Origin: Ustilaginoidea virens
Taxonomy: Eukaryota; Ascomycota; Sordariomycetes; Hypocreales; Clavicipitaceae
Assembly (NCBI RefSeq): GCF_000687475.1
Contig: NC_057318.1
Location: 1,736,001-1,800,000 of the forward strand
DNA length: 64,000 nt
Direction of reading: 5' to 3'
The notes beneath the pieces were generated by a model. The model was given only the letters and a program-made list of their open reading frames with translations. It had not been told where the DNA came from and did no database searches. Shown here one piece after another: positions 2,547 to 64,000 of this stretch. Both the position numbers and the translations under genes were made by a program. The first letter of the stretch is position 1, and each line of letters starts with the position of its first letter.

Positions 2547-3169
2547 CTTATAGGCTATACCTTATACAATTAGAGGATCCTAATTATTAATGCTAGAGCT
2601 AATAAGATATAGGCCGGGTCGTACCCACTCTCGGGCGATACTAATATATATAGGGATTAGTATAGCATATTACCCTTATGCCTTTATAGGTAAGACTTAT
2701 ATACCATTTAAATAGACCCTAAAGAATTAGGTTTTAATATAAAAGCTCTTCAATACATAAAAGATACTAGCTAGAAGAATAAAGGTATATTTCCAATTTA
2801 TATATAGTATAGATTGCTAGTTAACTATCTTCTAGGTAGATAACTATAAGGACCTTTAGTAGAAGGCTAAATAAATATCTGCCTTTCGAAGGTATAATTA
2901 GATAGCAGCGATAATAGTAATAGCAGTAAAAGGCCTTAGCGCTCTTAGGGCGACATAAGAGATATTAGACTTAAAGGAGCGGAAGGTATTAGCTTTAAAG
3001 CATTAGGCTTATATGCAGGAGGATATTACTGTATCGTTATAAGTACTTTTAGCCTAAAAGGAGGGGGAGGAGGCTTTAGAGGGTGGGCAAAATAAAAATA
3101 AAAGGGGAAAAGGCAATAGGGGGAGTAAAAAGGGGGAAAAAGAGGAGAATACCCTTATTACTAATATAA

Positions 3170-14038: not shown

Positions 14039-14960
14039 CCCCCTCCCCCCCCCCCTCCCCCTCCCCTATTGGCCCTTATAATAGCCCCCCCTCCTTTTCC
14101 CCTTTTTCCTTCTCCCCCTTTACCGCCCTCTTTTGCCCTTCAAAGATAAGCAGCTCTAATACGGCCTAAATACCCTCTAATGCCTCTATTTTATACTCCT
14201 TAAGGTCTAGTATTTCCTAGATTACCCTAGGAGTAATATTCCCCCCTATTATTACTACTATTACTACCGCCTTCCCCCTATTATAAGCAGTCGATACCTA
14301 CCGCGCCTTTAACTAAAAGGTATAATAATTATCGACCTACCTATATTAGTATCTATCCTATATAGCCCCTATACCTTATATATACCTCCCCCCCTATAGC
14401 TAATACCTCCTAGGCATATAGGAGGGTATAAATAGACTCCCGGTTTTTAGGCGTCTATTCTAGGGATTAGTAGGTCTTCCCTACCGTAATATATATAAAA
14501 TATGCCGCCCTAGGCCTTATATAGTATTATACCGTATTACTATCGTTTGAATATTAATTAGATTAGGGATCGATCAGTTAGGTTTTATTTTACTAAAAGT
14601 AGTATTGATAGTTAGGGTCTTCGGCCTATATTAAGTAAGGGTTATAGGGCTATCCCTGCGGCTTATTAGGCTAATAAAGATAGGTTAGTAATATTAGTAT
14701 AGTAGGAGCGAATAGTACCTACCCCTTTATCTAAAGACGCTGACTTTTTCGGTATACTACAATTATTATTATTATTGTTGCTGCTATAGCTACTGCTGCT
14801 GTTGCTGCTACTACTTCTGCTATTAATACCAATGCTGCTGCTGCTGCTATTGCTATTATTATTGCTATTATTGCTGCTATCGCTAATGCTGCTACTATTG
14901 CTATTATTACCGTTTTACCGTATGGGTTAGTATCGTCCCTATAGCGCTAGAGAATAGGGC
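14039..14960 (-). pseudogene. Antisense ORF of LINE B1
   Basis: Minus-strand gene convergent with ORF2. A (GCT/ATT)n tract at 14760-14915 encodes a Ser/Asn-rich stretch; it is followed by a short DKGV region (about 14700-14750) and the downstream frame with VD(N)YYALQ and LDLKERKV-like residues. The run ends in a pure C/T tract (14038-14070) that reads as a Gly-rich or G-run tail on the coding strand. Function unknown; conserved with copies A1, A3, A4, A2, B2 and B3. Confidence 0.6.
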
Positions 14961-21985: not shown

Positions 21986-22826
21986 GTGCCTTTTCTTTTT
22001 TTTTTTTCCTCTATAGCGCTAATTCTAAGGTGTATAATGACCCCTCTATCGCAGTATAGGGCCGATGCTGACCCTATTAGCAGATCGGCAGCAGCAGTAA
22101 TAACAGTAATAGCAATAGTTACAATAACAATAGTAAGAATAAGAATAGCAATAGTAGAAGCAAAAATGCCTCAATAGTCGGCAATACTAGATAAGGGGGT
22201 AAATATAGGTCTTATACGCTATAGAACCGCTTCTAACCCTTATATAGTAGCCCGGAGAACTATACGTATAGCCATATAGGCTATATCTAATATAATTAGA
22301 GGACCCTAAGTATCGATACTATAATTAATAAGGTATAGGCTGGGTCATACCCGCTCTCTAGCGAGGCTAATATAGGTAGGGACTAAGGCAGCCTACTATC
22401 CCTATGCCTTAATAGGTAAGATATATATACCCCTAGAGAGGACCTTTAAAAATTAGGTCTTAGTATAAAAACTCTTAGATATATAAAAGACTATTACTAG
22501 GGGAATAAAAATATATTTTCGATTTATATGCAGTATAGGTTATTAGCTAATTATCTTTACCTTTAGGTAGACGATTATAAGGCCCTTTAGTAAAAAGCTA
22601 AATAGGTATCTGCCTCTCGGGGGCATAATTAAGCGGCAGTAATAGCGGCAGCGGTAGTAATAGGGGGCCTTAGCACTCTTAAGGCAATCTAAGAGATATT
22701 AAACCTTAAAGAAAAGAAGGTCTTTACTTTAAAACGATAGGCCTATACCTAAAAGGATATTACTATATTACTATAGGTTTTTTTAGCCTAGGAGGGGGGG
22801 GAGGGGGCTTTAGAGGGGAAGTAAAC
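21986..22826 (+). pseudogene. Antisense ORF of LINE A3 (main part)
   Basis: Plus-strand gene opposite to ORF2 of its host LINE. An open block at 21986-22177 covers a hydrophobic stretch and the microsatellite and ends at a RIP stop (MPQ-stop, MPKRS in A2). Then come LDKGVNIGLIRYRTASNPYIVARR and, after a change of frame, NIGRD...LCLNR.DIYTPREDL, IYMQYRLLANYLYL.VDDYKAL and LNLKEKKVFTLKRQAYT. The Gly/Lys-rich C-terminus is split by copia-2 and continues at 27866-27960. Function unknown. The protein is shared with all other A and B LINEs. Confidence 0.62.
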
Positions 22827-24841: not shown

Positions 24842-25174
24842 GCTTTTTAGGTCATCCGGTATAGCATTAGTATTAGTAATGCTAGTAAGGTTAGCAGAGT
24901 TAGTAGGGTTATAAATGCTTTCTAGGTCATCCAGTAAAATAGCAGGTTCTCTGCTAGATACCCCCTCTGAACCTGTATTTTGCCCTCTGTGAAAGTCTCC
25001 TTCTAGGCCATTAGAAATAGGGCCTATACCTTTATTTTGGTGGATGAAGGTAATAAAGGTCGTTTTAGTAATAACCTTCTTCTTTGGAAGGTAGACCAGA
25101 TAGGTATTAGCATAGGTCTTTTTAAGTAGCTGAATACCTATGTGCCCTAGCCGTACATGTCAAATGCCGGCTAA

Positions 25175-26422: not shown

Positions 26423-26669
26423 TATAGTGGTTAAAAGTAGTTAAAAATGGTGCCAATAGCTGTAGGAATAGATGAATAACCAGCTGAATAGCTAGCAAAA
26501 TAGTCGAATAACTGGTAAAATAGCCAATAAATATAGTGGCTAGTAGCCTACTATAAAAGGTAACCGCAGAGTATAGCGGCAGGTCTTAATATAAAAGCAT
26601 AGATGCCGTAGGCGTTGTGCAAGTCCGTATTATAGCGTTGGTGTTCAAGGTGCTTATATAATGCCGTAA

Positions 26670-38037: not shown

Positions 38038-40572
38038 CAGCTGAAACAGCATGCCAGGTTCTTAGGGGTCGAAATCTACTATAAGCTAAAATAGAGGGAA
38101 TACTATATTAAGATCGCAAAGAAACTCGAGTGGTAGTAACTCGCACTTACGGCGATAGCAGCCTCTACCTAGGACTACTAATATCGGGAAGTACGTCTTA
38201 TCTATATACAGGTTATCTAAACCTCTATCGCTTTCGGCGCAGGGGTATAGTATACCCCTACTACCCCTAGAGGGGTAGTAAAAGGTATTATAAAATCCCT
38301 AGCTATAGAATAGTTAGCCTGCCTCTATATAATCACTAGGGCCTTTAAGGCTATACCGCTAGATACCCTTAAAACTAAGGCGGCTATATCCCTAATCGAC
38401 ATCTATCTTAATTATATCTATTAGCGGTTCCTTAAAAGAATAGCTAAGATAGGTATAACCGATAGGATTAACTATATATTAATAGTAGTAATAGCGATGC
38501 TCTAATGCTAATAAAAGAAAGGCCACTAAAGACCCTTAACCTATATACTATTCCCCGATTTTAACTCTAGCTAGCTTCTAGCCGAAGAGCGACTAATAAA
38601 AGACTAATATAACTAATAGTAGAATAATTAGGTAGTAGTAAAGGCAAGATACCCCTAACATAAGACCCTAGCGGCCGAGAGGGTACTAGACTTCTAATCT
38701 ATAGCGAAAATAACCTAACTATATAAAGGCCTATAAAAGTATAAGTCGGTAATATTTATCTAACTCTATATAAAAAAATCGGCTTTAACTCCTTTTTTTG
38801 CTTTTAATAAGTACCCTTAGTGCTATTAGCTTTCTACCGCTATAGGGAAGGCCCGGAAGACCTCTATTATATTATCCTCTCCTGCTTAAAATACTATAAA
38901 TAAAGGTATATACTTTTTAAACCTAGTCTTAGCCTTAGCTTACTTTGCAACCGATATAGTATATTTATCGCACTTAATAAACTATGCCTTATATAGATAA
39001 TCGCCTATTAGATACTTAATATTGACCGATTTAACTAATTCCGGCTTGCCTAATCCCTTTAATATAGTATAGCTAAAAGAGCTATTAAACTCCCCCATAT
39101 AGCCCCTATATAATATTTACGGTAATCCCGCAGTAGGAATAAAGAGCCCTAGGAATAAGTAAATCTTTTAGGCCCTATAGGCTAAAACTAATCGATAGTT
39201 ATTATCTTAATATTAAGGGTATTCTCCTTCCCTTCCCTCTTTTTACTCCCCCTATTGCCCTCCCCCCCTTTATCCCTATCGTTCCTAATTTACTCCCCTT
39301 TTAAAGCCCCCTCCCCCCCCTTTTAGGCTAAAAAAACCTATAATAATACGGCAATATCCTTTTAGGTATAGGCCTATTATTCTAAGGCGAGGACCTTCTT
39401 TTCCTTAAGGTTTAATATCTCCTAGGTTACCCTAAGAGCGCTAAAGCCCCCTACTGCTGCCGCTACTATTACTACTGCCTATCTATACCCCTAAGAGGCG
39501 GACGTTTATTTAGCCTTCTACTAGAGGGCCTTATAATTATCTACCTAAAGGCAAAGATAATTAGCTAATAACCCATACTATATATAAATCGAAAACGCAC
39601 TTTTATCCCCCTAATAATAGTCTCTTATACGTCTAAGAGTTCTTATACTAAGACCTAGTTCCTAAGGGTTCTCTCTAGGGGTATATATATCTTGCCCGCT
39701 AAAGCGCAGGGATAGTAGGCCGCCTTAATCCCTATTTATATTAGCCTCGCTAGAGAATATGTACGACCTAGCCTATACCTTATTGACTGTAGTATTAATA
39801 CTTAAGGTCCTCCGAGCATATTAGATATAGCCCGTATAGCTATACATATAATTCTCTAGGCTACTATATAAGGGTTAAAAGTAGTTCTGTAGCGCGCTAA
39901 ACCCATACTTACCCCTTTATTTAGTATTACCGACCGTTTAGGCATTTTTATTTCTACTATTGCTATTGCTATTATTATTACTGCTGCCGATCTGCTAATA
40001 GGGTCAGTATTGGCCTTATATTGCGATAGAGGGGTTATTATATACTTTAGAATTAGCACTATAGAGGAAAAGAAGAAAAAGAAGAAAAAGCATAAAGCCA
40101 GGGGGTATTACTAACCTATATACTAATGTAGTGCCTAAGGCTAATCGCTCCTATCTTTAAATTCGGCTCACTTTTGCCTATATACTATAGACTAACGCGC
40201 TTAAGATACGCCTAGGCCCCTAAAGGCGTATACCCGGCGAGAATACCGCTAATCCCACCCCTTTAGCCTTACCTTCCCCTTACTTTATACCTAATAATGC
40301 TCTAACCTAAACCCGATACTCCTAGAATTTATACTCGTATTCTTCCTAAGTAATACCGCTAGATATAGTCTTAAGCGGTTATATACCCTACTCTCTTACG
40401 CACTAGATACCCGCCGCCCCTGCTGCGGGGCGATATAAAGTAGAAATTAAGATTGCAGGAAGGGTTTTCCTCCCGGCTATTAGGTTTTTCCTTTCCGAAT
40501 CATCTCTATAGAAGTACTAGATAGGTTATTTAGCTCTAAATAGCCTCTAGCGTAAATTCATAATAATATTAA
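38038..40572 (+). mobile_element. LINE A4, 5'-truncated insertion in A2 ORF2
   Basis: 2.5-kb copy that begins inside the RT thumb (LKQHARFLGVE-type residues) and ends in hairpin, CCTCTAGCG and a (TAA)n-like tail at 40545-40572. A perfect 15-bp duplication TAAGAGGCTATAAAA is at 38023-38037 and 40573-40587. It therefore looks like an internal deletion of A2 but is an independent 5'-truncated insertion. It contains the ORF2 C-terminus (38060-39170; AFKAIPLDTLKTKAA, SCLKYYK.R) and the antisense gene. Confidence 0.88.
39220..40059 (-). pseudogene. Antisense ORF of LINE A4
   Basis: Minus-strand copy of the unknown antisense protein. The open block 39856-40059 reads MLILKYIITPLSQYKANTDP through the microsatellite to MPKRSVILNKGVSMG and NPYIVA. 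Downstream, leftward, are IGRD...LCL-type and GDK/FSIYI residues, VDNYKAL-like and LNLKEKKVLALE-like residues, and a Lys/Gly-rich tail. The same gene as in A1-A3 and B1-B3. Confidence 0.62.
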
Positions 40573-42559: not shown

Positions 42560-45500
42560 TGCTGCTACCGACCCCTATATGCCTATCTATATAATATTAG
42601 TCTTTTACTAGAATATATAGAAGAAAACCTCTTTTATATAAATAGTGCTTTACTACTAAAGCGAATCTAATATTATAGCGATTTAAGAACCTGCTATACT
42701 TAGCCGCGCCCCGCTAAGCCCGAGCCTTAATAAGTATATATTAGTAGCCTATAGCAGACGAGCGGCGATATATATTTATAAGCGGTATAGTCTTAGTATA
42801 TAGACTACTAAGAAAGGACCTAATTAGTATAAAGTCTGCCTTATTAAAACCAATATTTACTCTATCTACTCCCTAGGCTATAAATATAATTAGACCACCC
42901 CCCTTATAGACCTTATAAGGCTCCCGCCCCGACCTTAAAGCATATTCGTTAGAGACTTTAATATATATTATCCCTTATAGGATAGCCTAGATAGAACCTT
43001 ACCTAATATTAATACCCTTTTCGACCTTATAATATAGTAGAGATTCGGCCTAGCGACCCCCTGTAGCGAAATTATATAGTAAGCGCTAAATAAAAGAAAT
43101 AGTACTATAGACTATACCTAGGTTATATAAGACCTTACTATTAAGTACCTCGGTAATATAGACCTTGCTAGGTCTGATTATATCCTATAGCTTATCTATA
43201 TCAATATTAGCAACCTATAAGCCGCTAAAGCCTACCTGAAAAATAGCTAGAAATCCCTCGACCGATATTTTACTTAGGTAGAAGCTAAAAACCGCCTTAT
43301 GCCTATTGCTACTACGGCCCCGCTTAGCTCCCCTAAAGAAATAGATATATATACTAAATAGCTTACTTACTAACTTTAAGAAATTATGGATATTATAGCC
43401 CTAAAGAAAACCCCTAAAGCCCCCGCTATAGAACTATAGTAGAATAACTATATAAAAATAGCTACTATTGCCGCGAAGAAAGTATACTAGAAGTAGGTAG
43501 TATACTATACCCCTAAAAACTATAAGGCCGCTTAAGACGTAGGAGCTATTTAAACCTAGGTTGTATAAGAAGAGCGATAATACTTTTAGAAAGAGGCATT
43601 AAGGAAAGCTATAGTATAAAATATAGACCTTTAGTCCTTAGAATAATAGGCTAGACTATATAGTAGCCTCCCCCCTAAGTTTAGGGAGATCCTATTATTT
43701 AAATACGCCGGCCTTAGCTACCTTTTAGCAATTATATATAGCGATAAAGTATAGGTCCTCGCTTAATATTTCTTCCCTTAGTCCTATATAATATTTAAGG
43801 ATATATTAGACCTAATCTTCCCCTAACTCGCTAATATAGAGTTCCTATTATATAAGAGATTTATATATAAAGAGGTCTATACTGCCTTTTACTATATAGC
43901 TAGTTGGAAGGCCCCTAGATCGGATAGGCTACTTATAGGATTCCTTAAGGCATATAGCCCCCCCTTAATTATAGCTTTTACCTACCTTCTTAATAAGTCT
44001 TACTATATTAGGCATTATTTAGCCTAGTTCTGGGAGGCCTATATAGTTATATTAAGAAAGCCGGGAAAAAAACTAAAGGAATACTTTAAAGCGGGAGGCT
44101 AAAGACTAATATCCTTATTTAACTTAATTAGTAAAGTCCTAGAAGCTATAATAGTATACTGGCTTACTACTGCCTTTAAGGAGGGTAATTTACTCCTAGA
44201 CCTTTAGATAGGAAATAGAGCTAATCGTTCTATAGATATAGCCTTTAGTACTCTTATAGAAATAGTTCATATAGTATAGTATTACAGTAAGATCGCTTTA
44301 CTCTTCTAGCTTAATATATCTGCAGCCTTTAATATAGTAAATTATATTTAATTTACCTATTTGCTTTTAGAAAAGGGATTACTACTATAAATTATAATAT
44401 AGGTTTGCGGCTTTACCGACTTTTATATAGTATAAATTCACTTTAAAGGCAAATTAATTAATAACCTACTTATTACTATTAGGGTCCTATAAGGGTCCCC
44501 TTTCTCCCCTATCTTTTTCCTAGTCTATATTATACCGCTCTATAAGAGGCTTAAAAAGGTAGCCTCTATTATCACCCTAAGGTTTATAGATAATACTAAT
44601 ATTATAGTATATAGGAGGAGTATAAGGGAGACTTAGATCCTACTCGAAAAGGCATAGATAATCTATAATGAGTGGTCTAAGTAAGCCAGGCTTAATTTTA
44701 ACTTAGGAAAGAGTGAGCTTATTTATTTTATATATACTTATAAGGCGGACGAGATGCCGGTCTAATTTAGGATTATAATAATTTAGCTAAAATAGTATGC
44801 CTATTTCCTAAGGGTTAAAATCTACTGAAAACTTTAGTAGCGTAAATACTGCATAAAAATAGCTAAAAAGCTTAAGTGGTAGCGATTCGCCTTTATAGCA
44901 ATAGCGGCCTCTATATAGGGATATTAATATAGGGAGGCCCGATTAGTCTATATATAGGTTATTCGCATTACTATCGCTTTTGGCATAAGAGTATAATATA
45001 CCCCTACTGCCCCTAGCGGGGTAGCAAAAGGTATTGCAAAATTACTAACTATAGAATAATTATCTTGCCTTTAAACTATTACTAGGGCCTTTAAGGCTAT
45101 ACTAATAGATATCCTTAAGACTAAAGCAGCTACCCTACCTATCGATTTATACTTAAATTATATCTGCTAATAATTTTTAGAAAGGATAATAAAGATTGGG
45201 ATAACTAAGCGAATTAATTGCGCCTCTATTATAGTAGCGGCGATACTCTAATGCTATTAGCGGAGTAATTATAAAGGACCCTAGATATATATCCTATTCC
45301 TAGAATTCGACCTATAGTAGCTAATAGCTAAGAAATGCCTAGTAAAAGAGTGGCTTATTAAGTAGTCTAAATATTAAGCCGCTATAAGAGCGAGACGGCG
45401 GCGATATAGGCTTATAGCGGTAGAGAGGGCCCTAGACTTCTATTCCTTAGCTATAATAATTTAGCTTTATAATAGCCTTCTTAAATATAAATCGGCTATA

Positions 45501-45890
45501 CTTATTTAGCTTTATATTGAAAAAATCGGATTAAACTCCTTCCTCTATTAGCGCTAAATCCCTATTATGCCTTTATCTTTCTACTAATATAGGGAGGCCT
45601 TTAAAGACTATTATTACCTAATCCTTTTTTGCCTAAAATATAGATAATAGTGCTAATAGTTATATAGGATTAGCCTAAGCCTTTTTTAAGACCGCTAAAG
45701 GATCTCTATTACCTTTAATAAGCTAAGCCTCGCCTACTAATTTATATACTAGATCCTTAGCCTTAACTGCCTCGATTAGTTCTAGCTCGCTTAATCGCTT
45801 TAGCGACCCGCCCCTATAGAGGCACTAGGCTAACCCCGACCGCCTAATACCGCCCCTAATATCTAATAATAATATCCTAATGCGGGAGAA
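42560..45890 (+). pseudogene. LINE B2 ORF2 (APE endonuclease, RT, C-terminal Cys/His motif)
   Basis: Plus-strand ORF2. The endonuclease signature is near 42950-42985 (RDFNIYYPL.D). RT motif A is LNISAAFNIVNY near 44310, motif B GSPFSPIFFL near 44490, and the catalytic loop FIDNTNII near 44583 (FADDTNII-type originally). FLGVKIY-type follows near 44810. Thumb: TRAFKAILIDILKTKAA and IDLYLNYI near 45080-45180. The C-terminal SCLKYR.R motif and RDL.RISITFNKLSLAY run to about 45830. The layout fits the Tad1 clade. RIP stops throughout. Confidence 0.8.
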
Positions 45891-45939
45891 AGGAGATATA
45901 GTAGGCAGATAAATATAATCAATTCTTAGCTACTCTAAA

Positions 45940-46830
45940 GCTATAATATTAATATTAAAGCCCCCCTCCCCCCCCCCTTCCCCCTCCCCTGCCGGCCCCT
46001 ATAGTGGCCCTCCCTCTTTTTCCCCCCTCTCCCCCTCCCCTTCTACCGCCCTCTTCTGCCCCTAAAAGACGAGCAGCTCTAAGGCGGCTTAAATGCCCTT
46101 TAATACTTCTACTTTACGCTCTTTAAGGTCTAGCGCCTTTTAGGTTATCCTAGGAGTAATACTCCCCCTTACTACTATTACCGCCGCTACTACTTTCCCC
46201 CTACTGCGGGCAATTAATACCTACCGCGCCCTTAACTAGAGGGCATAGTAATTATCGACCTATCTATATTAGCACCTATCCTATATAGTCCCTATACTTT
46301 ATATATACCTCCCCTCTTGCGGCTAGCACCTTTTAGGCACCTAGGAGGGTATAAATAGACTCTTAGTTCTTAGGAGTCTATTTAAGGGGTCGGTAGGTCT
46401 TCTTTGCTATAGTATATACAAAATACGCCGCCCTAGGCCTTATACGGTATTATGCTATATTACTATCGTTCGAACGCCGATTAGATTAAGGTTTAGTTAG
46501 TTAGGTCTTACCTTATTAAGAGTAGTAATAATACTTAGGGTCTTTAGCTTGCATTAGGCAAAGATTATAGGGCTAACCTTATAGCTTGCCGGGCTAGTAA
46601 TAAAGGGTTAGTAGCGCTAGTATAGCAGGAGCGGGTAGTACTTACCCCTTTATCTAAAGATACTGACTTTTTCGGTATACTATTGCTATTATTATTATTG
46701 CTATTACTATAGCTATTGCTACTACTGCTATTGCTACTGCTAATGCTGCTGCTACTGCTATTGCTAATGCTAATGCTATTACTAATATTACCGCCCTACC
46801 GTATAGGTTAGTATTATCCCTATAGTACTA
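45940..46830 (-). pseudogene. Antisense ORF of LINE B2 (unknown conserved protein)
   Basis: Minus-strand gene convergent with ORF2. The (GCT/ATT)n tract at 46680-46790 gives a Ser/Asn-rich segment; then comes the DKGV block (about 46590-46660) ending ARQAIRLAL.SLPNAS. After a frame change, VDNYYAL.LRAR and LDLKERKVEVL at 46100-46270, and a Gly/Glu-rich tail made by the C-tract at 45960-45990. Compared with subfamily A, aligned codons differ mainly at third positions or by K/R exchange, which is the mark of past selection on this strand. No known domain recognised. Confidence 0.65.
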
Positions 46831-47520
46831 GAGAACGGGGCTTAAAGGGATTATATACGGAAAAAATAATAGCTATATAGAAAGGAAGAAAAAGGGATTA
46901 AGAAGTCGGGGGGTACCTATACCTTTATATCTTCGCCTAATTAAAGGCCTTTACGCCTTTTCTTTATATTTAGCTTACCCTAACCCCTAATCCGATACCG
47001 CTTGCCTTCCACTAAATACCCCCCCTACAGCCGATTTGCCGCTAATATGGCCCTAATAATAGAAAATTCCCTTACTTTTACTCTAATACCCCCACGCGAT
47101 ATATACGCCGCATAGCCGGCGCGCGTACTATATAGCTGGCGCTGCCCTGCTTATATAACCCCTATTTTACTTTCGATTTATAGTGCACTAATCTAGGGCC
47201 ACCTCTCCCCTATAGATACTAGACCTACCTTTTTCTAGACCTATTTTCTCCGGATCGCTTTTGCATTCTTCCTAGTACTGCCGCTAGGTACGATCCTAAG
47301 CGATAGTATACCTACCTTTCTTATATGCTAGAAACCTGTCGGCCCCCTAGGGGGCCCGATTCCCTAGTCGTTGTAATTATATTAGTAGGAAGGGTTTTCC
47401 CCCCGGACCTCGGGTTTTTCCCTTCTGGATTATTTGCCGGAGTACTAGATAGGCATTTCTAGCTTAGAATAGCCCCCTAGAGTAATTTAATAATAATAAT
47501 AATAATATATTAAGATTATA

Positions 47521-48600
47521 AAGAAACTTAAGTAGTAGCAATTCGCACTTATAGTAATAGCAGTCTTAACCTAAGGCTGCTAATACCGGGAAGTATGCCT
47601 AATCTATATATAGATTATCTGGACCTCTATAGCCTTTAGCGTAAAGGTATATTATACCCCTACTGCCCCTAAAGGGGTAGCAAAAGGCATTATAAAATCC
47701 CTAACTATAGATTAGTCAGCCTGCTTTCGTATAATTACTAAGGCCTTTAAGGCTATACTACTAAATACCCTTAAAACCAAGGCGGCTATACCCCCGACTA
47801 ACCTCTATTTTAACTATATCTACTAGTAGTTCCTAGAAAGAATAAATAAAATAGGCATAACCGATAGGATTAACTATATATTAGTAGTAATAGCAATAAT
47901 ATTCTAATACTAATAAAAGAAAAGCTACTAAAAACCCTTAGCCTATATACTATTCCTTAATCTTAATAGTAGCTAACTTTTAGCCGAAAAGCTATTAATA
48001 AAAGACTAATATAACTAATAATAAAGCAATTAGATAGTAGTAAAGGCGAGATACCCTTAGCATAAGACCCTAGCGGCTAAAAGGATATTAAACTTCTAAT
48101 CTATAGCGAAAATAACTCGATTATATAAAGGCCTATAAAAGCATAAGTCGGTAATACTTACCTAATTTTATATAAAAAAAATCGGCTTTAACTCTTTTTT
48201 TTGCCTCTAATAAATACACTTAATGCTATTACCTTTCTACTATTATAGGGAAGGCCTAGAAGACCTTTATTATATTATCCTCTCCTGCTTAAAGTACTAT
48301 AGATAAAGGTATATACTCCTTAGATCTAGTTTTAGCTTTAACCTACTTTACGACCAATATAGTATATCTATCGTACTTAATAAACTATACCTTATATAAA
48401 TAATTGCCTACTAAATATTTAATATTAACCGATTTAACTAATTCTAATTCGCTTAATCCCTTTAATATAGTATAGCTAAAAGAGCTATTAATCACCCTTA
48501 TATAGCCCCTATATAATATTTATAGTAATCATAAAGTGCGAATAAGGAGCCTTAGCAATAAGTAAATCTCTTAGGCCTTATAGGCTAGAATTAATCGATA
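47521..48600 (+). pseudogene. LINE A2 ORF2, part 3 (C-terminus)
   Basis: Resumes after LINE B2 with KKLKQQQFALIVIAV, IAFSVKVYYTPTAP, SACFRIITKAFKAILLNTLK and PPTNLYFNYIYQQFLERI, then the Cys/His region (SCLKYYR.R near 48280) and the basic C-terminus. RIP stops throughout. Completes the A2 ORF2 begun at 36082. Confidence 0.75.
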
Positions 48601-48609
48601 ATTATTACT

Positions 48610-49525
48610 TTAGTATTAGAGGTATCCTTTTTCCCTTCCCCTTTTTTACTTTTTCTATTACCTTCCCCCCTTTTATCCTTATTATCTTTATCCTACCCCC
48701 CCTCTAAAGCCCCCTCCCCCCCCTTTTAAGCTAGGAAAACCTATAATAATATAGCAATATCCTTTTAGGTATAAGCCTATCGTTCTAAAGTAAAGACCTT
48801 TCTTTCTTTAAAATCTAATATCTCCTAGGTTGCCTTAAGAGTACTAAGGCCCCCTAGTACTACTACCGCTATTACTACTACCGCCTAATTATACCCTTAA
48901 GAGGTAGACGCCTATTTAGCCTTCTACTAGAGGGCCTTATAGTCGTCTATCTAAAGGTAAAGATAGTTAGCTAGTAACCTATACTATATATAAATCGAAA
49001 ACGTACCTTTATCCCCCTAGTAATAGTCTCCTATACATTTAAAAGTTTTTATATTAGGACCCGGTTCCTAGGGGTCCTTTCTAGGGGTATATATATTTTG
49101 CCTGCTAGGGCATAAAGATAGTAGGCCGTACTAATCCCTATATATATTAGCCTCGCTAGAGAGCGGGTATAACCTAGTCTATACCTTATTAGCTATAGTA
49201 TCTATATTTAGGATCCTTTAAGCGTATTAAATATAGCCCGTAAGGCTATACGTATAATTTGCCGGGCTACTATATAAAGGTCAGCTATGGTTTTACCGCG
49301 CATAAGATCCGCACTTACCCCCTTATCTAGTATTGCCGACCGCTTAGGCATCTTTATTCTTATTATTATTATTCTTATTATTGTTGTTATTGCTACTGCT
49401 ATTATTGCTGCTACTACTGCCGTTCTGCTAATAAGGTTAGTACTGGCCCTATACCGCGATAGAGGGGTTATTATATACTTTAAAATTAGCACTATAGAGG
49501 AAAAGAAGAAAAGAAGAAAAGGCAC
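48610..49525 (-). pseudogene. Antisense ORF of LINE A2
   Basis: Best open copy of the N-terminal half: 49208-49525 is open for 105 residues (MPFLLFFFSSIVLILKYIIT through an ATT-rich tract to MPKRSAILDKGVSADLM and VARQIIRIAL). Downstream, toward 48620, lie YKAL..KAKQASTS-like, LDFKERKVFTLERQAYT and a GGGGGFRGG tail, in a second frame. The hydrophobic N-terminal block may be a translated upstream region rather than part of the protein, since an ATG also precedes KRSAILDKGV. Unknown function. Confidence 0.65.
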
Positions 49526-50039
49526 TAAGTCGGGGGGTATTACTAATCTATATACTGATATAGTGCCTAAAGCTGCCTACTTTAACCTTTAAAGTTAGCT
49601 TACTTTCTCTTCTAACTAAAAAATCGATATATACCAAAAAGCGCTTAGGCTACTATAGATGCATGTTTAGTAAGAATATGCCTATTACGAGCGCGCTGCT
49701 GGCCCTATCCCCCTAGCTTTACCCTCCCTTTACTTCTCACCTGATAAGACTACCGACCTAGACCTAATATTCCGGGACTTCTTACTCGCACTCTTCCTAT
49801 ATAATACCGCTAGATATAATCTTAAGCGATTGCACACCCTACTCTCTTATGCACTAGATACTTGCCGCCCCCGCTGCAGGGCGATAAAAAGTAGAAATTA
49901 AGAATATAGGAAGGGTTTTCCTCCCGGCTACTAGGTTTTTCCTTTCCCAATTATCTTTATAGAAGTACTAGATAGGTTATTTAGCTCTAAATAGCCTCTA
50001 GCGTATTTTAATAATAATAATAATAAGGCTATTAGCTTA

Positions 50040-51269: not shown

Positions 51270-52740
51270 GTTAAAGCGGCAGAAATTATAAATATAGATA
51301 GAGGAAGTAGGGGTAGACTCAAATCGAGCTATTATAACTACCGTATTACTATTGCTAACGATAACTACAAACGAATTAGCGGTAATACCATATAAACTAA
51401 TATAGGAACCTAAGAAGAAACCGAATTGCTTAAATAGTATTACTAAAAGATTGCAGATTATATCCCGGCAGTTATACTGGGAAATATGTGGAATGCTATT
51501 ACTAGCCTAGTCGATAGTATTAAATATATTAACCGAACTAACCCTATTTTAAACTTAAATTTAAACTTAAATCTTATTACGATTAAAAATTTAGAAAAAG
51601 TAATAGAAAGCGCCGTAAATAAAGCTTTTGCCTTAAAGACCCCCTTTAGAATAATTTAGGCTAGTATTACTGCTAAAGGTATATTAATAACCGTACTATT
51701 TAGACCGACTACCCTATCTATACCGCTAAGAATCTACCGTAAAATAATAATTAAAGAAGATAGTATTACTAAAAACCTATAATAGAGAACCCCTATTAAG
51801 ATCGTAAAAGCGAAAAATACTACTACCAGAGGTATTAATGCTATAGTAGCCCGCCGACTTTATAGTAGAGATATAGTTATTACCTTTATAGAAGCCGTAT
51901 TCTATTTTATTATAGAAACTATATAGATCCCCCTTATATTTAGTATGGGAGCCGTACTAAATATCTATACCTTTAGTATTATTATTAAAGAATTTCCTAC
52001 CCGATTCTCTAAAAATATCCCTTTTAAAGATATTAAATTAAACCTAGCTTAAGCTAATAGCCCCGGTATTAGTAGAATTGCTATAAAAAAAACCTTGCGA
52101 AGAAGCAATAAGAGCCCCTTTAATTAATAAAGTAACTAATATAAAAGCAGTAAACCGACTCTATAAGACTAGAGTTATCTATTAAATAGAAATCTTTAAG
52201 GCTAAACTATATAATAAAACTATTTATTTAAGATAGTGCTATTAATGCTTTAAATTTAGATATATCGCAAATTACTATAGGGAGACCCTTTAATATAGAT
52301 GGTATAGTATAGAGAGATACCCTAATAAAAATAAAGACTGCTTTAGTATTATTAGTAATAAAAGAGAGTACTATCTTAACTGCTAGGGACCTTATTTAGC
52401 TTAGTCTTAATTCTACCCTATAGCAAGCCGGCAATAGGATATCGCAAGACAGGCTTATAGCACTAGACTAATATAGTTTATAAATATTAGTATCTTATTA
52501 ATGCCTCCCCCCTTTATTTTAAAGGATAGGGGCTATAAATGCCTCGCTAGCAATTCCCTAAAAGAAGACTCTTTAAGAAAATAAATCGGCAGATTATATA
52601 AAAAAAGCTTTATCGCCCCTAAGAGGAGTAATAGTAGTAGTAATATTGCTATATTCTTCTAACCCGACCTATTTAAGCCTATTGCTATTAATATACCGAG
52701 AGCCCTAACCCCCTAGCTCTAATACTAATAATAGAGGTAT
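51270..52740 (+). pseudogene. LINE C2 ORF1
   Basis: Plus frame with a helical N-terminal domain and, near 52230-52310, a CYQCFKFRYIANYY-like knuckle region in which Cys/His codons are partly Tyr. Aligns with the minus-strand C1 pieces. Stops at former Gln/Trp. The start codon is not determined. Confidence 0.65.
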
Positions 52741-52859
52741 TATATTAAAATATATAAAAGAAATTACTACTAGCGTACCTCGCCTTTAATTTTAAATTAG
52801 AACTAAATATTATCGCCCTCTAGGAATTTATAGCTCTAAATAGACTCCTTTTATACTCT

Positions 52860-55800
52860 AGCCTTAGTAGATACTAAATAGCTGCCTATAGTAGATATGC
52901 AGCAATCTATATCTATAAAAGATATACTTTTAGCTTTTATGTAATAGATTTGTGTATAAATTAGTGTTATATTATACTTTATAATACCAATATTTATTCT
53001 ATTTACTTTTTAATCCTTTTTCTAAATCAATTTACCCCCCTTTAGGAATTTACTTAAACCTCCCCTTATTCTTATAGTACTTTTACTAGCGACTTTAATA
53101 TTTATTACCCTATATAGGACTACTTTTATAGAACCTCTTTAGGCTATAATACCCTCCTTAAACTTATATTAAAATAAAAGCTAACCTTTATAATACTATA
53201 GGGAGAGATAATTAGATAAGCCCTAAGTAAATATAATAGCACTATCGACTATATATAGAGTATAAACGACCTTAATATAGAGTTTATAGGGGCGGTAGAT
53301 ATTATTAGATCTAACTATATCCTTTAGGTAATCTAAATAGAAATAAGACTAAACGAGTTTTATAAACTACTATTGATATACTAATAGAAGAAACTTAATA
53401 AAATCCTCGCCTACGCTAAAGCTAAAGTAAGGATAGCTATCCTATATACCTCGTACCTACCCTAATCCCCTATAGAGATTAATACCTTTGCCTAATAGCT
53501 TACAACCTAACTATAGGCTATCGCTAATATCATAGCGCCTAAAAGAGGAACTAAACCGCTAAGAAAGGCCTTATAGTAGACCTAAGAAGTATAGTCGGCT
53601 ATAATAGCAGCCCATAAAGCTATAAGAAATTAAAGAAAAAACCGTATTAACTTTAACTAGTTAATAGTATAAAAAGTAGAGACAAACTAAATTAAGGTTA
53701 TGTAATAGGAAAGGTATTAGATATAGAGAGAAGCTATTAATAAGGCTATAACGAAAAACGCAGACCTATAGTCTCTAGAGAAATAGGCTTAGCTATATAA
53801 TAGACTCCTTCTAAAATTAAAAGAAATCCCTATACTTCTTAGAAGTAAAAAAGTATAAATATAAGAAGCAAAAATATACTCCTTTAAAGTAGAAATACTA
53901 ATAGAAAGATTCTTTCTAATATTAATAGCTATCCTTAATAATATTTTAGACCTATAATTCTTTTACCTTACAAATATAATATTCGCCCCTAATAATGAAT
54001 TCTTAAAAGCAGATATCTATAATGCCTTCCGATATATAGCTAGCTGGAAAGCATTAGGCCTTAATAGTATACTAGTGGGATTCCTTAAAGCCTATAAAAA
54101 ACCAGTTATTAAAGCCCTAATAATACTCCTTAATACTATATATAGAACTAGTTACTATCTAATATAATTTTATGAAGCTAAAGTCGTAATACTAAAAAAA
54201 CCCGGCAAAATACCTAAAGAATACTAAAGAGCTAGAGCCTAGCGATTAATATCCCTTTTAAACCTCTTTAGAAAAGTATTTAAAGCTATAGTAGCAAAAA
54301 GACTAATAATAATTGTAGAAGAATAGAAATTACTATTAGATATATAAATAGGCAATAGAGCAAATAGATTAATAGATATAATACTATATATCCTAGTAGA
54401 AGTAGTTAAAGCTACCTAGTAATATAAAGGAATAGTATTATTGCTATAATTGGAAATCTTTATAGCATTTAATACCGTTAATTATACTAGACTTATATAC
54501 CTCCTTCTCTAAAGTGATACCCCCCGATAGATAGCAGCCTAGGTCTAAAGCTTTAGTATATCGCATTTAGCTAAAATCTTTTTTAAAGGCTAACCTACCT
54601 AACAATTCTTAATTATAGTAGGAGTGCCTTAAAGCTCCTTAATCTCCTTAGTCTTTTTCCTCTTTTATATTATACCTTTATACTATAGACTTAAAGTAGT
54701 AGATAATTTACTAATCCTAGGATTCGCAAATAATACTAATATAATTATATATAGCAAAATAACGCGGGATATAATTGTAACCCTTTCGAAAGTATAGAAG
54801 ATCTACAAAAAATAGTCGGTAAAGGCTAAATTATAATTTAACCTAATAAAGAGTAAGCTAATACACTTTACTAAATAGTACTAACTAGATACTATAATAA
54901 TACGATTCGGCAAAACGACTATCTAGCCTATATAATACGCTTAATTCCTTAAAGTAGAGATTAATTATAAATTTAGCTAGTCTGACTATAGGGCCTAAAG
55001 AGTAAAGAAATTAGAAAGGTAGAAGCTCGCCCTTATTGCTCTAGCGGCCTCTATATAAGGTTATTAATTCCGTAAAGCCCAACTACTATATATATAGGTT
55101 ATTAGAACTATAATCGCCTTTAGAGCTAGAATCTAGCATACTCCTATTAAGCTAGGAAATATAGTAAGAGGCATTATATATAGTCTAACCGCTAAATAAT
55201 CGAAGTATCTCTTTATAGTTATAAGAGCCTACTAAGTAATATTTAATGCAATCGTAGAAACTAAAGTAATAATACCCTTATTTGACCTTTACCTTAATTA
55301 AGCCTAATAACGATTCCTTACTAGAACCTAAGAAAGTAGTATAGCCAACCTTATCTCTAATATATATATTATTATTTAAGCTTAGCTATAATAAAGACCT
55401 ACCTATAGATAAAAGCGACCGACCGAGAATAGAATACTAAACTATATAGCCTTTAAAGACTTACTTCTACTTTAAGATAACGAACTATCCCCTGCCTATA
55501 TTTTAGCTCTCGAATAGATAAAAAGATAGCAATCTAAATAGCGATTCGCCTAAATATAATACCCACTAAGAAGCCGCCTTACTACCGAATATACCCCTAA
55601 TTTTACCTCTATAAAAAAGATGCTAAACCTCTATAAAAACCTCTATAAATATAAATCCTCCCTCTTTACCTAACTTAGAATAGAAAAAATAGGCCTTATT
55701 AAGTTCCTATATAAAATAAAGGTCCTATCTATTTATTACCTATACTATTAATATAGACTTAATATAGAAAATATCGAATATATAATCCTAAAGTATAGTA

Positions 55801-56000
55801 ACTATCTTAAAAACCCTCCCCTTTATATCTAAAACCGTCCTATACTAAATAAGTATAATATTATCTAAGTACTTAAAAATAAAGATTTAGCTAAGTAGGT
55901 TATTAAATAGGTCATTAATACCCACTAGCTTAAATAATTCACTTTAGCTATTATACTTACCGCCTATATAGACTTTAGCTCTAATAGTAACCTAATACGA
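52860..56000 (+). pseudogene. LINE C2 ORF2 (endonuclease, RT)
   Basis: Endonuclease SDFNIYYPIQD near 53088. RT: KALGLNSILVGFLKAYK (about 54045), LEIFIAFNTVNYTRLIYLL motif A (about 54455), VPQSSLISLVFFLFYI motif B (about 54625), FANNTNIIIY catalytic loop (about 54725), QFLKVEINYKFSQSDYR (about 54945). Thumb: RAYQVIFNAIVETKVIIPLF and DLYLNQAQQRFL (about 55225-55310). The C-terminus is less clear. Same domain order as A and B, with many RIP stops. Confidence 0.75.
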
Positions 56001-57835
56001 TTATACCCTAACCCTAGAATATATATATATATATAGATAATTATAGATAATAATACAATTAAACTTTTAAATAGAAAAAATATATTCTTTCTATATAAGC
56101 TACCTATACTATTAATAGCTTTAGATCCCTAGCTTTCCTAATACCCCTAACTCTTTAGTTCTCTATTTACTCTATACTACCCTTACTATTACTATAACTA
56201 TTATTAGGAGCTACTTTTGCCTTCCCTTTTTCCTTCCCTTTCCCCCTTAGGGAGGGGGATACTATAGTTAAGTAAATCTTTTATTTAATTTTAGCATATA
56301 AACCTAATATCCCTTTTATAAGTAGTTTTACCGTCTTTAACTTTTCCTTTTTCCGCTTAAAAGGGGAAGGGATAGGGATATTAATTTAAAAGTGAAAGGA
56401 AAATAGCAATAGAACTACCAATTTAACTTATTTAAGCGGCGATAGTATAGTAGGCGGAAAGAGCTTTAATAATAGCAGTATAAATAGCGCCCTAAAGGCA
56501 GAAGCTACTAGCTGCGACTACGCTTAGGATTTTATAAACTTTAAAAACATAACTATTTACTATAATTCACTAGAAAAAGGCAATATAGGATTTTCTGATT
56601 AGGTTAGTAAGACCCCCTCGCTATAAGGCGGTTCCCCCCTAATAGCCGGCCTCAAAGCAGGCTTATTATAAATAACAATAATAAAACTAATAAGGCTTCT
56701 ATTGTTAGTAGTAATATTACTAGTAGTAGTAAGAGGCTAAGGTTCTTCAAATATAGAGAGGGGCAAAGGCCCCCCGCTATAGGCTTATTCTAAAGCTAAA
56801 ACTCCTCTCTTAATAAATCTAAGGAAATCAGCTAAAAGCGTAATTAAGACTATAGGTATTATTATTTATATTATAATGGTAAAGTTATTTTAGCCTTTTT
56901 AGGGAACCGAGGTGATTAGTATAATAGACTAATATATAGCCTATTAGACCTTATGGTACATATTTTTATCTACCTACTAAGGTTAGCTATTAAGTTAAGA
57001 AATACTAGTAAGCCGCTATACTTACTTCCTAATCGCAAGCGAAGGCCTTCTATAATACTAGCATACTTTCTATTAGTTTGCGGTTTATAGTATTACATTC
57101 GAGAATATAATAAGGCTTCTGCTTTAAAGTATAAGCGAAATAGGCACCCCTAAGCCCTACCTACTATTAGCAAAAGGCAGATAATAAATAAAAAGAACTT
57201 CTCACCCTATTAATTATAATAATAAACGGCTATATTAGCACTATAGCATATGCAGGGACGATATAGCCATTTATAGGCTAGACTAAGACCTAACTCTAGA
57301 ATATTCGGCATCTTAAAGAACAAAAGGCATATAAAAGCTTTAATAGCGCAATTGAAGCGGAGCTATATATAAGGGAGTGAAGGAAAATTTTTAATAACTT
57401 TTAATAAGGAGTAAGAAGGGAGGAGGAAAAAAAATAAAAAGGTAGGGCAGGTAAAAAAGACTTTATACCGCTATATGCCTATACTAGATTACTCGACCGT
57501 CTACTAACTGCCCCAACCTACATTAGACGAAGTTAATAATAATAAAACGCACGACTTATTGTATTACCGCCGCCTATCCGATATTGACGTTATTGCTACT
57601 ACCTCTACCTAATAATACTGCCTATGCCGAACCCGATGCATACCTACCCTAGAGCCAACCTAATGCCCACTAATGCATACTATTATACCCATCGAGGCGT
57701 TTCTACTATCTATACTTTCCCAGCCCTGCCGCCAGACCTAGTCTTATGCGATAGGACACCTCTTTGTAATATATAGTAAATCCCCTTTAGATTCAAAGGG
57801 ATATTACTAATTAAGGATAGTATATAGGTTTTCCT
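56000..57835. other. LINE C2 3' block, coding state unresolved
   Basis: The 1.8-kb 3' block corresponds in position to the antisense-gene block of A and B, but I could not align it to them. With RIP stops ignored, more than one frame on both strands looks protein-like (for example plus HLKEQKAYKSFNSAIEAEL near 57310; minus YYILECNTINRKLIESMLV near 57080). The short open minus frame 57710-57982 runs through the hairpin and (TA)n tail and is probably chance. Confidence 0.45.
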
Positions 57836-58987
57836 CCCGGCACTCGGGTTTCCTAAATAAATTAGGCATAAAGGTACTAGTATTAGGCTAGACGGGGACT
57901 TATTCCCTCTAGATAGCTTAGCTAGAGTAATATATATATATATATATATATAAAGGACAGACTCTTGCGATTTCGCCCGCACCTAGGTAGCGGCATAAAA
58001 CCGCCTCTAAAATCAATTCTAACATTTCTAATTGCTTTTTCTCGTCCGTTTACCCCCCTTACCTATAGTATATCGCATCTAGGGAGTAAGCGCGGCAGGC
58101 GCAAATAAAGTAATAGATATCAATAGAGGGAATAGGGGCGGCATAGTATACAGCCACTATAACCCTAATACTATAATCGCGACTAGTATATAGTACAACT
58201 AGACCGAGACCGAACCTACCTAAGGGCAAAAGCGACTAATAGCCGATATTATTATAGATTTTATAAAAGAGCTATAAGACTATATTCCCCTAGTAGTACT
58301 AAGAAGAATGCGAAAGGCTATAAATATTATAGTAGAGACCTCCCGGTAAGAGACCGACCTAGGCAATATCTATACCCCTATTAGAACCCTTATATAAACG
58401 ATTAAAACCATAGTTAATAAGGCTATATAGAACCTCCTAAAGACCGCTATGGCCCCTACTATATAGGCATCTATTACTGCATAAGGACTCGCCGCTGCTA
58501 TACCACCCTAATGCAGCCTAGCTCCCCTTGCGGTACCCCTTTGCATCCACCATAAGGTCCTTATTAAGGGAAATACTATTAGCAAAATCCTCTAAAACTA
58601 TACCCTAATCGAAATCGTTAATATAGTCAATAGGGCTACCGCTAAAGGAATAGTAATCGCGGCCTATAGGCTTTATAGTAGCGATATAATTATTACCTTT
58701 AAAAAGGAAAAAGCGAAGTATACTATAGATATAGCCTAGATATGCCCCGCTTTTAGCTAAAAGGCGGAACTTAACCGACGATTATTTAATATTATCGTTA
58801 AAAGCTTCCCGACCTACTATACTGTAAATACTATAGTAGAAGATATCTAGTCGAATCTTATTAAGACTAATAGAGAGGGCTTTATTAGGGTCTCCCTTTA
58901 CTACCCTAGGGGGATTATAATATAGGCGCCTTTAATTATAAGGATAGACTCTATCGACCTCGCAAATAAACTTTATAAGGCTAGCAT

Positions 58988-62893: not shown

Positions 62894-64000
62894 TTATTAT
62901 TAAATTACTCTAGGGGGCTATTCTAAGCTAGAAATGCCTATCTAGTACTCCGGCAAATAATCTAGAAGGGAAAAACCCGAGGTCCGGGGGGAAAACCCTT
63001 CCTGCTAATATAATTATAACGACTAGGGAGTCGGGCCCCCTAAGGGGCCGATAGGTTTCCGGCATATAGGAAAGGTAGGTACGCTATCGCTTAGGATCGT
63101 ACCTAGCGGTAATACTAGGAAGAGTGCGAGAGCGATCTAGAGAAAGTAGGTCTAAAAAAAGGTAGGTCTAGTATCTATAGGGGAGAGGTAGCCCTAGGTT
63201 AGTATACTATAAATCGAAAGTAAAGTAGGGGTTATACGAGCGGGGCAGTGCTAGCTGTATAGCACGCGTGCTGGCTGCGCGGTATATATATCGCGTGGGG
63301 GCATCGGAGCAAGAGTAAGGGAATTTTCTATTATTAGGGCCATATCGGCGGTGAATCGGCTATAAAGGGGGTGCTTAGTAGAAGGTAAGCGGTATTAGGT
63401 CGGGGGTTAAAGTAAGCTAAATATAAAGAAAGGGCATAAAGGCCTTTAATCGGGCGAAGATATAAAAGTATAGGTGCCCCCCGACTTTTTAATCCTTTTT
63501 TCTTCCTTTCTATATAGCCGTTATTTTTTCTATATATAATCCCCTTAAGCCCTATTCTTTAGCGCTGCGGGGATAATACTAACCCGTGCGGTAGGGCGGT
63601 AATATTAGTAATAGCATTAGTATTAGCAATAGCGGCAGTAGTAGTATTAGTAGTAGCAATAGTAGCAATAGCAATAGCTATAGCAATAGTAATAATAATA
63701 ATAGTAGTAGTATGCCGAAAAAGTTGGTATCTTTGGATAAAGGGGTGGGTACTACTTACTCCCGCTATACTAGCGCTACTAACCCTTTATTATTAGCCTG
63801 GCGAGCTATAAGGTTAGCCTTACAATCTTTACCTAATACGAGCTAAAGACCCTAAGTATTATTACTACTTTTAATAAGATAAGACCCGACCGATTAAACT
63901 TTAATCTAATTAGCATTCGAATAATAGTAATACAGTATAATGCCATATAGGGCCTAAGGCAGTATATTTTGCATATATTATAATGGGGAAGACCTGCCGA
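62894..64000 (-). mobile_element. LINE B3, 3' end, minus orientation, runs off the window
   Basis: The tail TTATTATTAAATTACTC at about 62894-62910 interrupts A5. The hairpin CCCGAGGTCCGGG at 62976-62988 and B-type 3' block follow. Only the 3' block is in the window. It is the least RIP-altered B copy, with more CG/TG kept. Confidence 0.85.
63600..64000 (+). pseudogene. Antisense ORF of LINE B3 (N-terminal half)
   Basis: Clearest version of the B-type antisense protein. The (AGT/AAT)n microsatellite at 63600-63715 encodes Ser/Asn runs, immediately followed by MPKKLVSLDKGVGTTYSRYT and NPLLLAWRAIRLALQSLPNT (63711-63840), open until a TAA at about 63845. A second frame then carries LSIITTFNKIRPDRLNF and LRQYILHIIMGKT to the window end. 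The same frame change occurs in subfamily A. Unknown function; not the LINE's ORF1 or ORF2. Confidence 0.65.

What the first reader, a model, noticed from the sequence alone, without database searches (positions are those of the whole stretch)
45940..46830. Conserved protein-coding gene antisense to ORF2 in the 3' block of Tad1-like LINEs
Seen: in A1, A2, A3, A4, B1, B2 and B3 the last 1.4-1.6 kb carries a gene on the strand opposite to ORF1/ORF2. Between subfamilies A and B the nucleotide sequences differ widely, yet aligned codons in the antisense frame differ mostly at third positions or by K/R exchange (VDDYKAL..KAK vs VDNYYAL.LRAR; LKEKKV vs LKERKV; MPKRSAILDKGV vs MPKKLVSLDKGV). Known: Tad1-clade LINEs encode ORF1 and ORF2 on one strand. 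Inference: an accessory, convergently transcribed gene inherited by the whole LINE lineage, with its promoter next to the tail. It could regulate the element, counter host silencing, or be a captured gene.
Basis: partly seen in the sequence, partly recalled or inferred. Interest (0 to 1): 0.88.

Follow-up and report, generated by a model that had tools for sequence, protein, structure and literature searches.

The report
Spliced antisense gene inside fungal LINEs
A family of jumping elements (LINEs) in a rice-infecting fungus carries, near its tail and on the opposite strand, what looks like a small gene split by introns that encodes a cysteine-rich protein, an unusual extra gene for this kind of element.

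Summary
The host is taken to be Ustilaginoidea virens (label of P0001). In the 3' block of four LINE lineages (A-D) the strand opposite ORF2 carries a small spliced gene: exons 33/82/131/24 nt in A and B, 106/131/30 in C and D, introns 47-72 nt. The protein is 88-89 aa with the motif C-x2-C-x10-C-x9-C-x2-C-x6-C. The model came from RIP-mutated copies; two pieces without RIP then matched it. L082 is stop-free over 88 spliced codons (stop not covered); partial L083 keeps the motif and one intron phase. Between them, over 45 codons, pN/pS is 0.37 in the gene frame and 0.67-1.93 in the other five. The gene lies antisense beside 38 of 41 ORF2 copies. A scan that ignored introns found no codon signal. 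Database searches found only a protein of the same genome, but the RIP-free 89-aa protein was not queried. Transcription and function are untested. Best guess: a zinc-binding accessory protein made from an antisense promoter near the tail.

The parts
46646..46678 (-). A1 copy: exon 1, ATG at 46678 (33 nt)
   Evidence: ATG columns A30, T30, A8G22 over 30 A copies; same exon in L082
46594..46645 (-). A1: intron 1, 52 nt, donor GTGGGT, branch GCTAAC, acceptor TAG
   Evidence: also 52 nt in B and in L082; absent in C and D
46512..46593 (-). A1: exon 2 (82 nt), first half of the Cys motif
   Evidence: 82 nt also in B, L082 and L083; in C/D it corresponds to the last 82 nt of a 106-nt exon
46440..46511 (-). 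A1: intron 2, 72 nt, phase 1; weakest junction, donor GTAGGA, no standard branch site close to the acceptor in A
   Evidence: 47 nt in B and L082, 49 in C/D, 103 in L083
46309..46439 (-). A1: exon 3 (131 nt), second half of the Cys motif
   Evidence: 131 nt in A, B, C, D and L082
46260..46308 (-). A1: intron 3, 49 nt, phase 0
   Evidence: donor GTAAGT in C, D and L081
46236..46259 (-). A1: exon 4, VDNYYAL/VDNYHAL and stop TAG
   Evidence: T in 30 of 30 and A in 30 of 30 copies at the first two positions of the stop; TAG also in L081
48927..49351 (-). B copy: gene, exons 49319-49351, 49185-49266, 49007-49137, 48927-48950
56944..57311 (-). C copy: gene, exons 57206-57311, 57026-57156, 56944-56973 (intron 1 absent)
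14313..14755 (-). second A copy of the gene
   Evidence: 78% to A1
63712..64000 (+). A copy of the gene, element in reverse, cut by the window end
   Evidence: 83% to A1
39521..39945 (-). second B copy of the gene
   Evidence: 81%
22166..22590 (+). third B copy of the gene, element in reverse
   Evidence: 81%
2547..2859 (+). partial B copy of the gene, element in reverse; a further piece matches at 1872-1939
42585..45926 (+). A1 ORF2 (RIP-mutated), sense strand; RVT_1 at about 44076-44744
   Evidence: (RVT_1, E 3.4e-11); codon periodicity 19/12/64
47395..47417 (+). A1 tail marker (CCCGG..CGGG inverted repeat) near the LINE 3' end
   Evidence: C3:1783395-1783417

Best explanation
The 3' end of this LINE lineage carries a convergent, intron-containing, protein-coding gene on the strand opposite ORF2. 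It encodes an 88-89 aa protein with a C-x2-C-x10-C-x9-C-x2-C-x6-C motif. Shown by sequence: gene structure, conservation, selection on one frame, linkage and orientation. Inferred from established knowledge: the introns survive retrotransposition because in the sense LINE RNA they are antisense and are not spliced; and a gene at the 3' end can be carried even by insertions truncated at the 5' end. Inferred: transcription from an antisense promoter between the ATG and the tail (0.6-0.8 kb). Inferred, about 0.35 likely: the protein binds zinc and nucleic acid and acts in trans as an accessory factor of the element (RNA or DNA binding, or interference with silencing).
For: Exon lengths 33/82/131/24 in A and B and 106/131/30 in C and D, coding totals divisible by three, while intron lengths differ. 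Intron 3 sits at the same place in A, B, C, D and L081, with donors GTATAT (2 of 30 A copies have G at the fifth base), GTGCGT and GTAAGT, branch GCTAAT, GCTGAC or GTTGAC and acceptor TAG. Removing intron 1 from A and B makes their exon 2 line up with C/D. L082, without RIP (GC 0.64) and fetched after the model was made, has the same exons and no stop in 88 spliced codons, with Q, W and Cys where B copies showed stops or Tyr. L083, divergent and without RIP, keeps the Cys spacing and the phase of intron 2. L082 against L083, 45 codons: pN/pS 0.37 in the gene frame, 0.67-1.93 in five other frames; differences by codon position 12/9/23, p=0.025. A-B transversions 12/8/25, p=0.005. Columns with a transversion among 21 C/D-type copies fall 9/7/21 by codon position over the exon stretches examined (sum; the last stretch runs past the TAG). 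Orientation: 38 of 41 ORF2 matches have the gene on the opposite strand, 0 on the same strand, 3 none.
Against: No transcript data. Selection looks weaker than in ORF2 (19/12/64 against 12/8/25). A-C and B-C transversions are not significant (p 0.26 and 0.35; compared over exons 2 and 3) nor C-D (0/3/5, p 0.09). L082-L083 transversions alone are 10/4/11. In C/D-type copies transversion columns are no rarer in exons (7.4-9.6 per 100) than in introns (5.8-8.0) or upstream (7.4). Intron 2 did not match the intron pattern in A, B, C or L082, and its donors in A and B are poor. Of the 2, 4 and 2 pattern matches in A, B and C, only 2, 2 and 1 are used in the model, and their number is not unusual in A (171 of 1000 shuffles reach it) or C (239 of 1000); B (21) and L082 (6) stand out. 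Exon limits were chosen while looking at the alignment; L082 and L083 are the independent check. No named domain was found, so the zinc role rests on Cys spacing alone. L083 has no exact tail marker listed on its contig near it, so it may not lie in a LINE.
Confidence: 0.85

Rival explanations
1. The block is a non-coding 3' UTR and the peptides are chance reading frames in low-complexity, RIP-biased DNA.
For: A frame-naive comparison of A and B shows no codon periodicity in any 200-nt window of the block, and many frame-breaking indels. Stops after de-RIP do not single out the frame. Transversion columns are no rarer in exons than in introns among C/D-type copies.
Against: The codon signal appears once introns are removed, two pieces without RIP match the model and pN/pS is 0.37 in one frame only.
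Confidence: 0.05
2. A host gene captured by the LINE long ago and carried as a passenger, with selection acting on a host role; L083 could be a host copy.
For: Intron-containing genes are typical of host genes. L083 has no RIP; no exact tail marker and no RVT_1 match (capped list) is listed near it.
Against: The gene is kept in at least four LINE lineages at one place and on one strand. Searches found no homologue outside U. virens, though these did not include the RIP-free 89-aa protein.
Confidence: 0.3
3. The selected product is the antisense RNA (regulator of the LINE or source of small RNAs) and the protein is incidental.
For: Antisense non-coding RNAs from transposons are reported in a powdery mildew (PMC10648671; title and start of abstract, passages).
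Against: Codon-position bias, exons without indels, a conserved Cys spacing and intron phases are not expected of a non-coding RNA.
Confidence: 0.08
4. The protein is longer: an in-frame open frame after the conserved TAG is joined to the first exons by a second acceptor (the TAG itself) or by read-through, giving a short and a long form.
For: TAG is conserved in A, B, C, D and L081, and the frame stays open for 199 codons after it in L081. Indels between L081 and the C copy within that frame are 9, 3 and (at its end) 6 nt. LKERKVLALER (B) and LIERGVLALER (D) match in the same frame.
Against: Transversions between L081 and the C copy in that frame are 11/3/6, with no excess at position 3. The opposite strand of L081 is open for 308 codons too, so openness there means little.
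Confidence: 0.4

Closest known systems
Primate L1 ORF0
   Same: Small protein (71 aa) encoded on the antisense strand of a LINE downstream of an antisense promoter (abstract and passages of PMC4908685).
   Different: ORF0 lies in the unspliced 5' UTR; here the gene lies at the 3' end, has 2-3 internal introns and is shared by diverged lineages.
Antisense homing-endonuclease gene with a spliceosomal intron in nuclear rDNA group I introns (Didymium squamulosum L2066)
   Same: A mobile element carrying an antisense gene that is interrupted by a 47-nt spliceosomal intron and expressed in vivo (abstract of PMC9548176).
   Different: A group I intron, not a retrotransposon; the product is a known endonuclease; ours has no known homologue and no expression data.
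Penelope-like elements of bdelloid rotifers
   Same: Intron retention is explained by use of an antisense template, where introns are not recognised (passages of PMC3846280).
   Different: There the template is proposed to be antisense; here the LINE template is sense and the gene itself is antisense.
Fungal Zn2Cys6 domain
   Same: Six Cys with C-x2-C and C-x2-C-x6-C parts (spacing of the family recalled, not from a call).
   Different: First loop x10 instead of x6; no Pfam match at E<=10 for the 89-aa protein.
HIV-1 ASP and HTLV-1 HBZ
   Same: Antisense genes of retroviruses (ASP: titles and abstract starts; HBZ and map positions recalled).
   Different: Retroviruses, not LINEs; no sequence relation was examined.

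Membership tests
LINE (non-LTR retrotransposon), as the carrier | Reverse transcriptase of the RVT_1 family in the sense ORF2 | tested here: met
   RVT_1, E 3.4e-11, in the read-through of window 42585-45929; three frames of the C copy (52502-55993) gave no family at E<=0.01
LINE (non-LTR retrotransposon), as the carrier | Endonuclease domain before the RT | tested here: inconclusive
   Exo_endo_phos_2 at E 0.01, 16.1 bits, below the curated 27.4
LINE (non-LTR retrotransposon), as the carrier | Common 3' end with variable 5' truncation, no LTR | tested here: inconclusive
   copies share the 3' end and B copies begin at different upstream points, but truncation was not told apart from interruption, and target-site duplications and LTRs were not looked for
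Tad1 clade | RT phylogeny places it in Tad1; RNase H in ORF2 (features recalled) | tested here: inconclusive
   no tree made; no Pfam match at E<=5 in window 44700-45929
Protein-coding gene | Purifying selection on one reading frame | tested here: met
   pN/pS 0.37 against 0.67-1.93 in five other frames, 45 codons
Protein-coding gene | Transcribed and translated | not testable with these tools
   no RNA or proteome data on hand
Zn2Cys6 (Zn_clus) | C-x2-C-x6-C-x5-12-C-x2-C-x6-8-C (recalled) | tested here: not met
   C-x2-C-x10-C-x9-C-x2-C-x6-C read from L082 and L083 (counted by eye); no Pfam match for the 89-aa protein
L1 ORF0-like antisense ORF | Located in the 5' UTR, unspliced | tested here: not met
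   gene lies 3' of ORF2 with introns

The most novel reading that the evidence does not exclude
A LINE lineage has evolved or captured a spliced gene on its antisense strand that makes a cysteine-rich trans-acting protein of its own. The gene uses the strand asymmetry of retrotransposition to keep its introns, so the element can express it only from integrated DNA and never from its own transposition RNA, and it may make two forms by using a conserved stop codon as a second splice acceptor.
Probability: 0.35. Interest if true: 0.88.

Novelty: new variant of a known kind. Interest (0 to 1): 0.74.

Why it matters
LINEs are described as carrying one or two sense ORFs; a conserved, spliced, antisense further gene would widen what non-LTR elements are known to encode. 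It would give a way to separate expression of integrated copies from the transposition RNA, since only the antisense transcript can be spliced. It also shows a practical point: in RIP-mutated genomes a spliced gene can look like non-coding DNA to frame-based tests until the introns are found.

Tried and rejected
Frame-naive codon-phase scan of A against B: no signal, and I noted the block as lacking periodicity; it failed because introns break the frame. A first model with a 167-nt first exon gave A-B transversions 13/8/10 in that exon and was replaced after a third intron was found. Alignment A1, used, rests on that superseded model for A and B and also runs past the TAG. Stop counts after de-RIP: uninformative, RIP is saturated even in ORF2 (18 of 454 codons still stops). 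First alignments were wrong because loci of minus-strand copies had not been turned; corrected, results of 12 and 14 dropped. Six-frame protein comparisons of the blocks did not single out a frame. L068, L070 and L078 were left out of the C and D consensus as intermediate; they are. Comparison of the C window copy with L081 after the TAG: 11/3/6, against a simple coding reading there. Intron-pattern counts against shuffles: not significant in A and C. Rfam: no match at the gathering threshold in the window. Homologues: three protein searches found one protein, UV8b_04403 of the same genome, or none; the queries were alignment A1, UV8b_04403 itself and a D consensus, so the RIP-free proteins of L082 and L083 were not searched against the large database (cap reached). 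Pfam, NCBIfam (bacterial and archaeal models) and PDB sequence searches gave nothing above a cut-off; best weak matches E 0.05-0.14. Papers: no paper of the library names UV8b_04403; listings showed no spliced antisense gene in a LINE, but they cover open-licence papers, a few rows each, and I saw titles, abstract starts and, for five papers, an abstract with outline or passages. Listings gave background only. Structure prediction was not tried.

Full report
What was asked. The finding claims a protein-coding gene antisense to ORF2 in the last 1.4-1.6 kb of Tad1-like LINEs, around window 45940-46830.

Setting. The window is G000:C3:1736001-1800000 of a 37.16 Mb genome in 8 contigs. The one database protein that matched is UV8b_04403 of Ustilaginoidea virens, on a contig of the same length as C3 (6,429,791), so the host is taken to be that fungus. 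The A block (45940-47496) gave 41 matches in the genome and the B block (48470-50030) 43 (lower bounds). Among 30 aligned A copies 65 of about 4500 differences from the majority are transversions, among 30 B copies 307 of about 5200, as expected of RIP.

First test, negative. With A and B aligned without regard to introns, transversions (which RIP cannot make) show strong codon periodicity in ORF2 (19/12/64 over 817 nt without an indel) but none in any 200-nt window of the block (all p above 0.1), and indels break the frame. On that evidence alone the gene would be rejected.

What changed the reading. Two further lineages, C (window copy near 55900-57945) and D, were found and 20 pieces fetched. 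A stretch of 43 codons aligns in A, B, C and D without an indel, with flanks that no longer align between A, B and C/D. Its end carries a splice signal: donor GTAAGT in C and D, GTGCGT in B, GTATAT in A (2 of 30 copies with G at the fifth base), then a branch site (GCTAAT, GCTGAC, GCTGAC, GTTGAC in A-D) and acceptor TAG, intron lengths 49-56 nt. A pattern scan then pointed to one more intron, 52 nt in A and B, absent from C and D; removing it makes A and B line up with C and D (LDKG|PGEL.GWPYDPC against LELGPGLARKWPYRPC). The scan did not find intron 2, whose donors are poor in A and B; that intron is inferred from phase, from the alignment and from L083.

Gene model. A: exons 46678-46646, 46593-46512, 46439-46309, 46259-46236; B: 49351-49319, 49266-49185, 49137-49007, 48950-48927; C: 57311-57206, 57156-57026, 56973-56944. 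Exon lengths are 33/82/131/24 (A and B) and 106/131/30 (C and D); introns are 52/72/49 (A), 52/47/56 (B) and 49/52 (C and D). Coding lengths are 270 and 267 nt. A-B transversions over 270 nt are 12/8/25 (p=0.005); C-D 0/3/5 (p=0.09); A-C and B-C, over exons 2 and 3, are not significant for transversions, p=0.26 and 0.35. Among 21 C/D-type copies, columns with a transversion fall 0/1/7, 2/3/5 and 7/3/9 by codon position in three exon stretches, but are no rarer there than in introns or upstream.

Independent check. L082 and L083 were fetched after the model was made. Both have high GC (0.64 and 0.66). L082 carries ATG, the three introns at the predicted places and a spliced frame without a stop over 88 codons; the piece ends inside the last codon before the predicted stop. 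L083 is divergent and partial: one exon, an intron of 103 nt with donor GTGTGT and a GCTGAC branch, and the start of the next exon, in the same phase. Both read C-x2-C-x10-C-x9-C-x2-C-x6-C; in the RIP copies several of these Cys read as Tyr. Over the 45 codons they share, pN/pS is 0.37 (dN 0.27, dS 1.32) in the gene frame; the other five frames give 0.67 to 1.93; transversions alone are 10/4/11.

Linkage to the LINE. Of 41 ORF2 matches, 38 have a match to the 89-aa gene within 1.5 kb of the ORF2 end on the opposite strand, none on the same strand and 3 none; the median distance to the first coordinate of the gene match is 383 nt (87 of 142 gene matches used). Of 82 exact copies of a tail marker, 67 have a match 0.3-1.9 kb inside on the opposite strand, 1 on the same strand and 14 none, against 4 of 82 on the outer side. 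Split by query: the 89-aa gene gives 26 opposite and 0 same; UV8b_04403, which is the frame beyond the TAG in C/D-type copies, gives 41 opposite and 2 same. So the tail count mixes the gene with the frame next to it. The L082 gene is on + and an RVT_1 match with a single stop lies 1.5 kb away on -.

A conserved stop. VDDYKAL-like (A, B) and VDEDEYHKV-like (C, D) ends are followed by TAG (TAA in some RIP copies) in all lineages and by TAG in L081, a copy without RIP. L081 is a fragment that, by eye, lacks the first exon and part of the next; it is open for 199 codons after the TAG. The same-frame similarity LKERKVLALER / LIERGVLALER and indels in multiples of three suggest that coding goes on, by a second acceptor or read-through; the transversions there (11/3/6) and an equally open opposite strand speak against leaning on it. 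This is left open.

How it probably works. Shown: structure, selection, orientation and linkage. From established knowledge: introns on the antisense strand are not recognised in the sense LINE RNA, so they persist through retrotransposition; a similar argument is made for Penelope-like elements (PMC3846280, passages). Inferred: an antisense promoter within the 0.6-0.8 kb between ATG and tail. Inferred from the Cys spacing alone: zinc binding, and from that a nucleic-acid-binding accessory role. No family library supports it.

Comparison. The nearest known cases that I saw are L1 ORF0 (antisense, 71 aa, 5' UTR, unspliced; passages of PMC4908685) and an antisense homing-endonuclease gene with a spliceosomal intron inside a mobile group I intron (abstract of PMC9548176). 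Neither is a spliced gene at the 3' end of a LINE. In the listings (open-licence papers, capped rows) I saw no such case; that is weak evidence of novelty.

Verdict. An antisense protein-coding gene, about 0.9 likely; its function is unknown, with a zinc-binding accessory protein as the working idea, about 0.35.

Noticed in passing
A 46594-46645, B 49267-49318, against C 57206-57311: One intron is present in A, B and L082 and absent at the same place in C and D: intron gain or loss within a transposon lineage.
   Followed up: partly
L081, base 506 (0-based) of the minus strand; window A 46236-46238, B 48927-48929: A TAG conserved in all lineages examined, in frame with a long open frame beyond it; could be stop, second acceptor or read-through site.
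   Followed up: partly
L083 (C1:5584603-5584846): Divergent copy of the gene without RIP; no exact tail marker and no RVT_1 match (capped list) near it; host gene, domesticated copy or old LINE end.
   Followed up: no
window 47395-47417 and 261 places in the genome: A CCCGG..CGGG inverted repeat near the LINE tail, 136 forward and 125 reverse matches with up to 3 mismatches and 0 in the reversed control; perhaps an RT recognition structure.
   Followed up: partly
window 23636-26440: Two long open frames (507 and 421 aa, minus strand) that look like a Copia-type element hardly touched by RIP, amid heavily mutated repeats (family name recalled).
   Followed up: no
C3:5529345-5529863: The database protein UV8b_04403 is an open frame inside a LINE 3' fragment with a tail marker at C3:5530408 on the opposite strand, so that gene model is transposon-derived.
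   Followed up: partly
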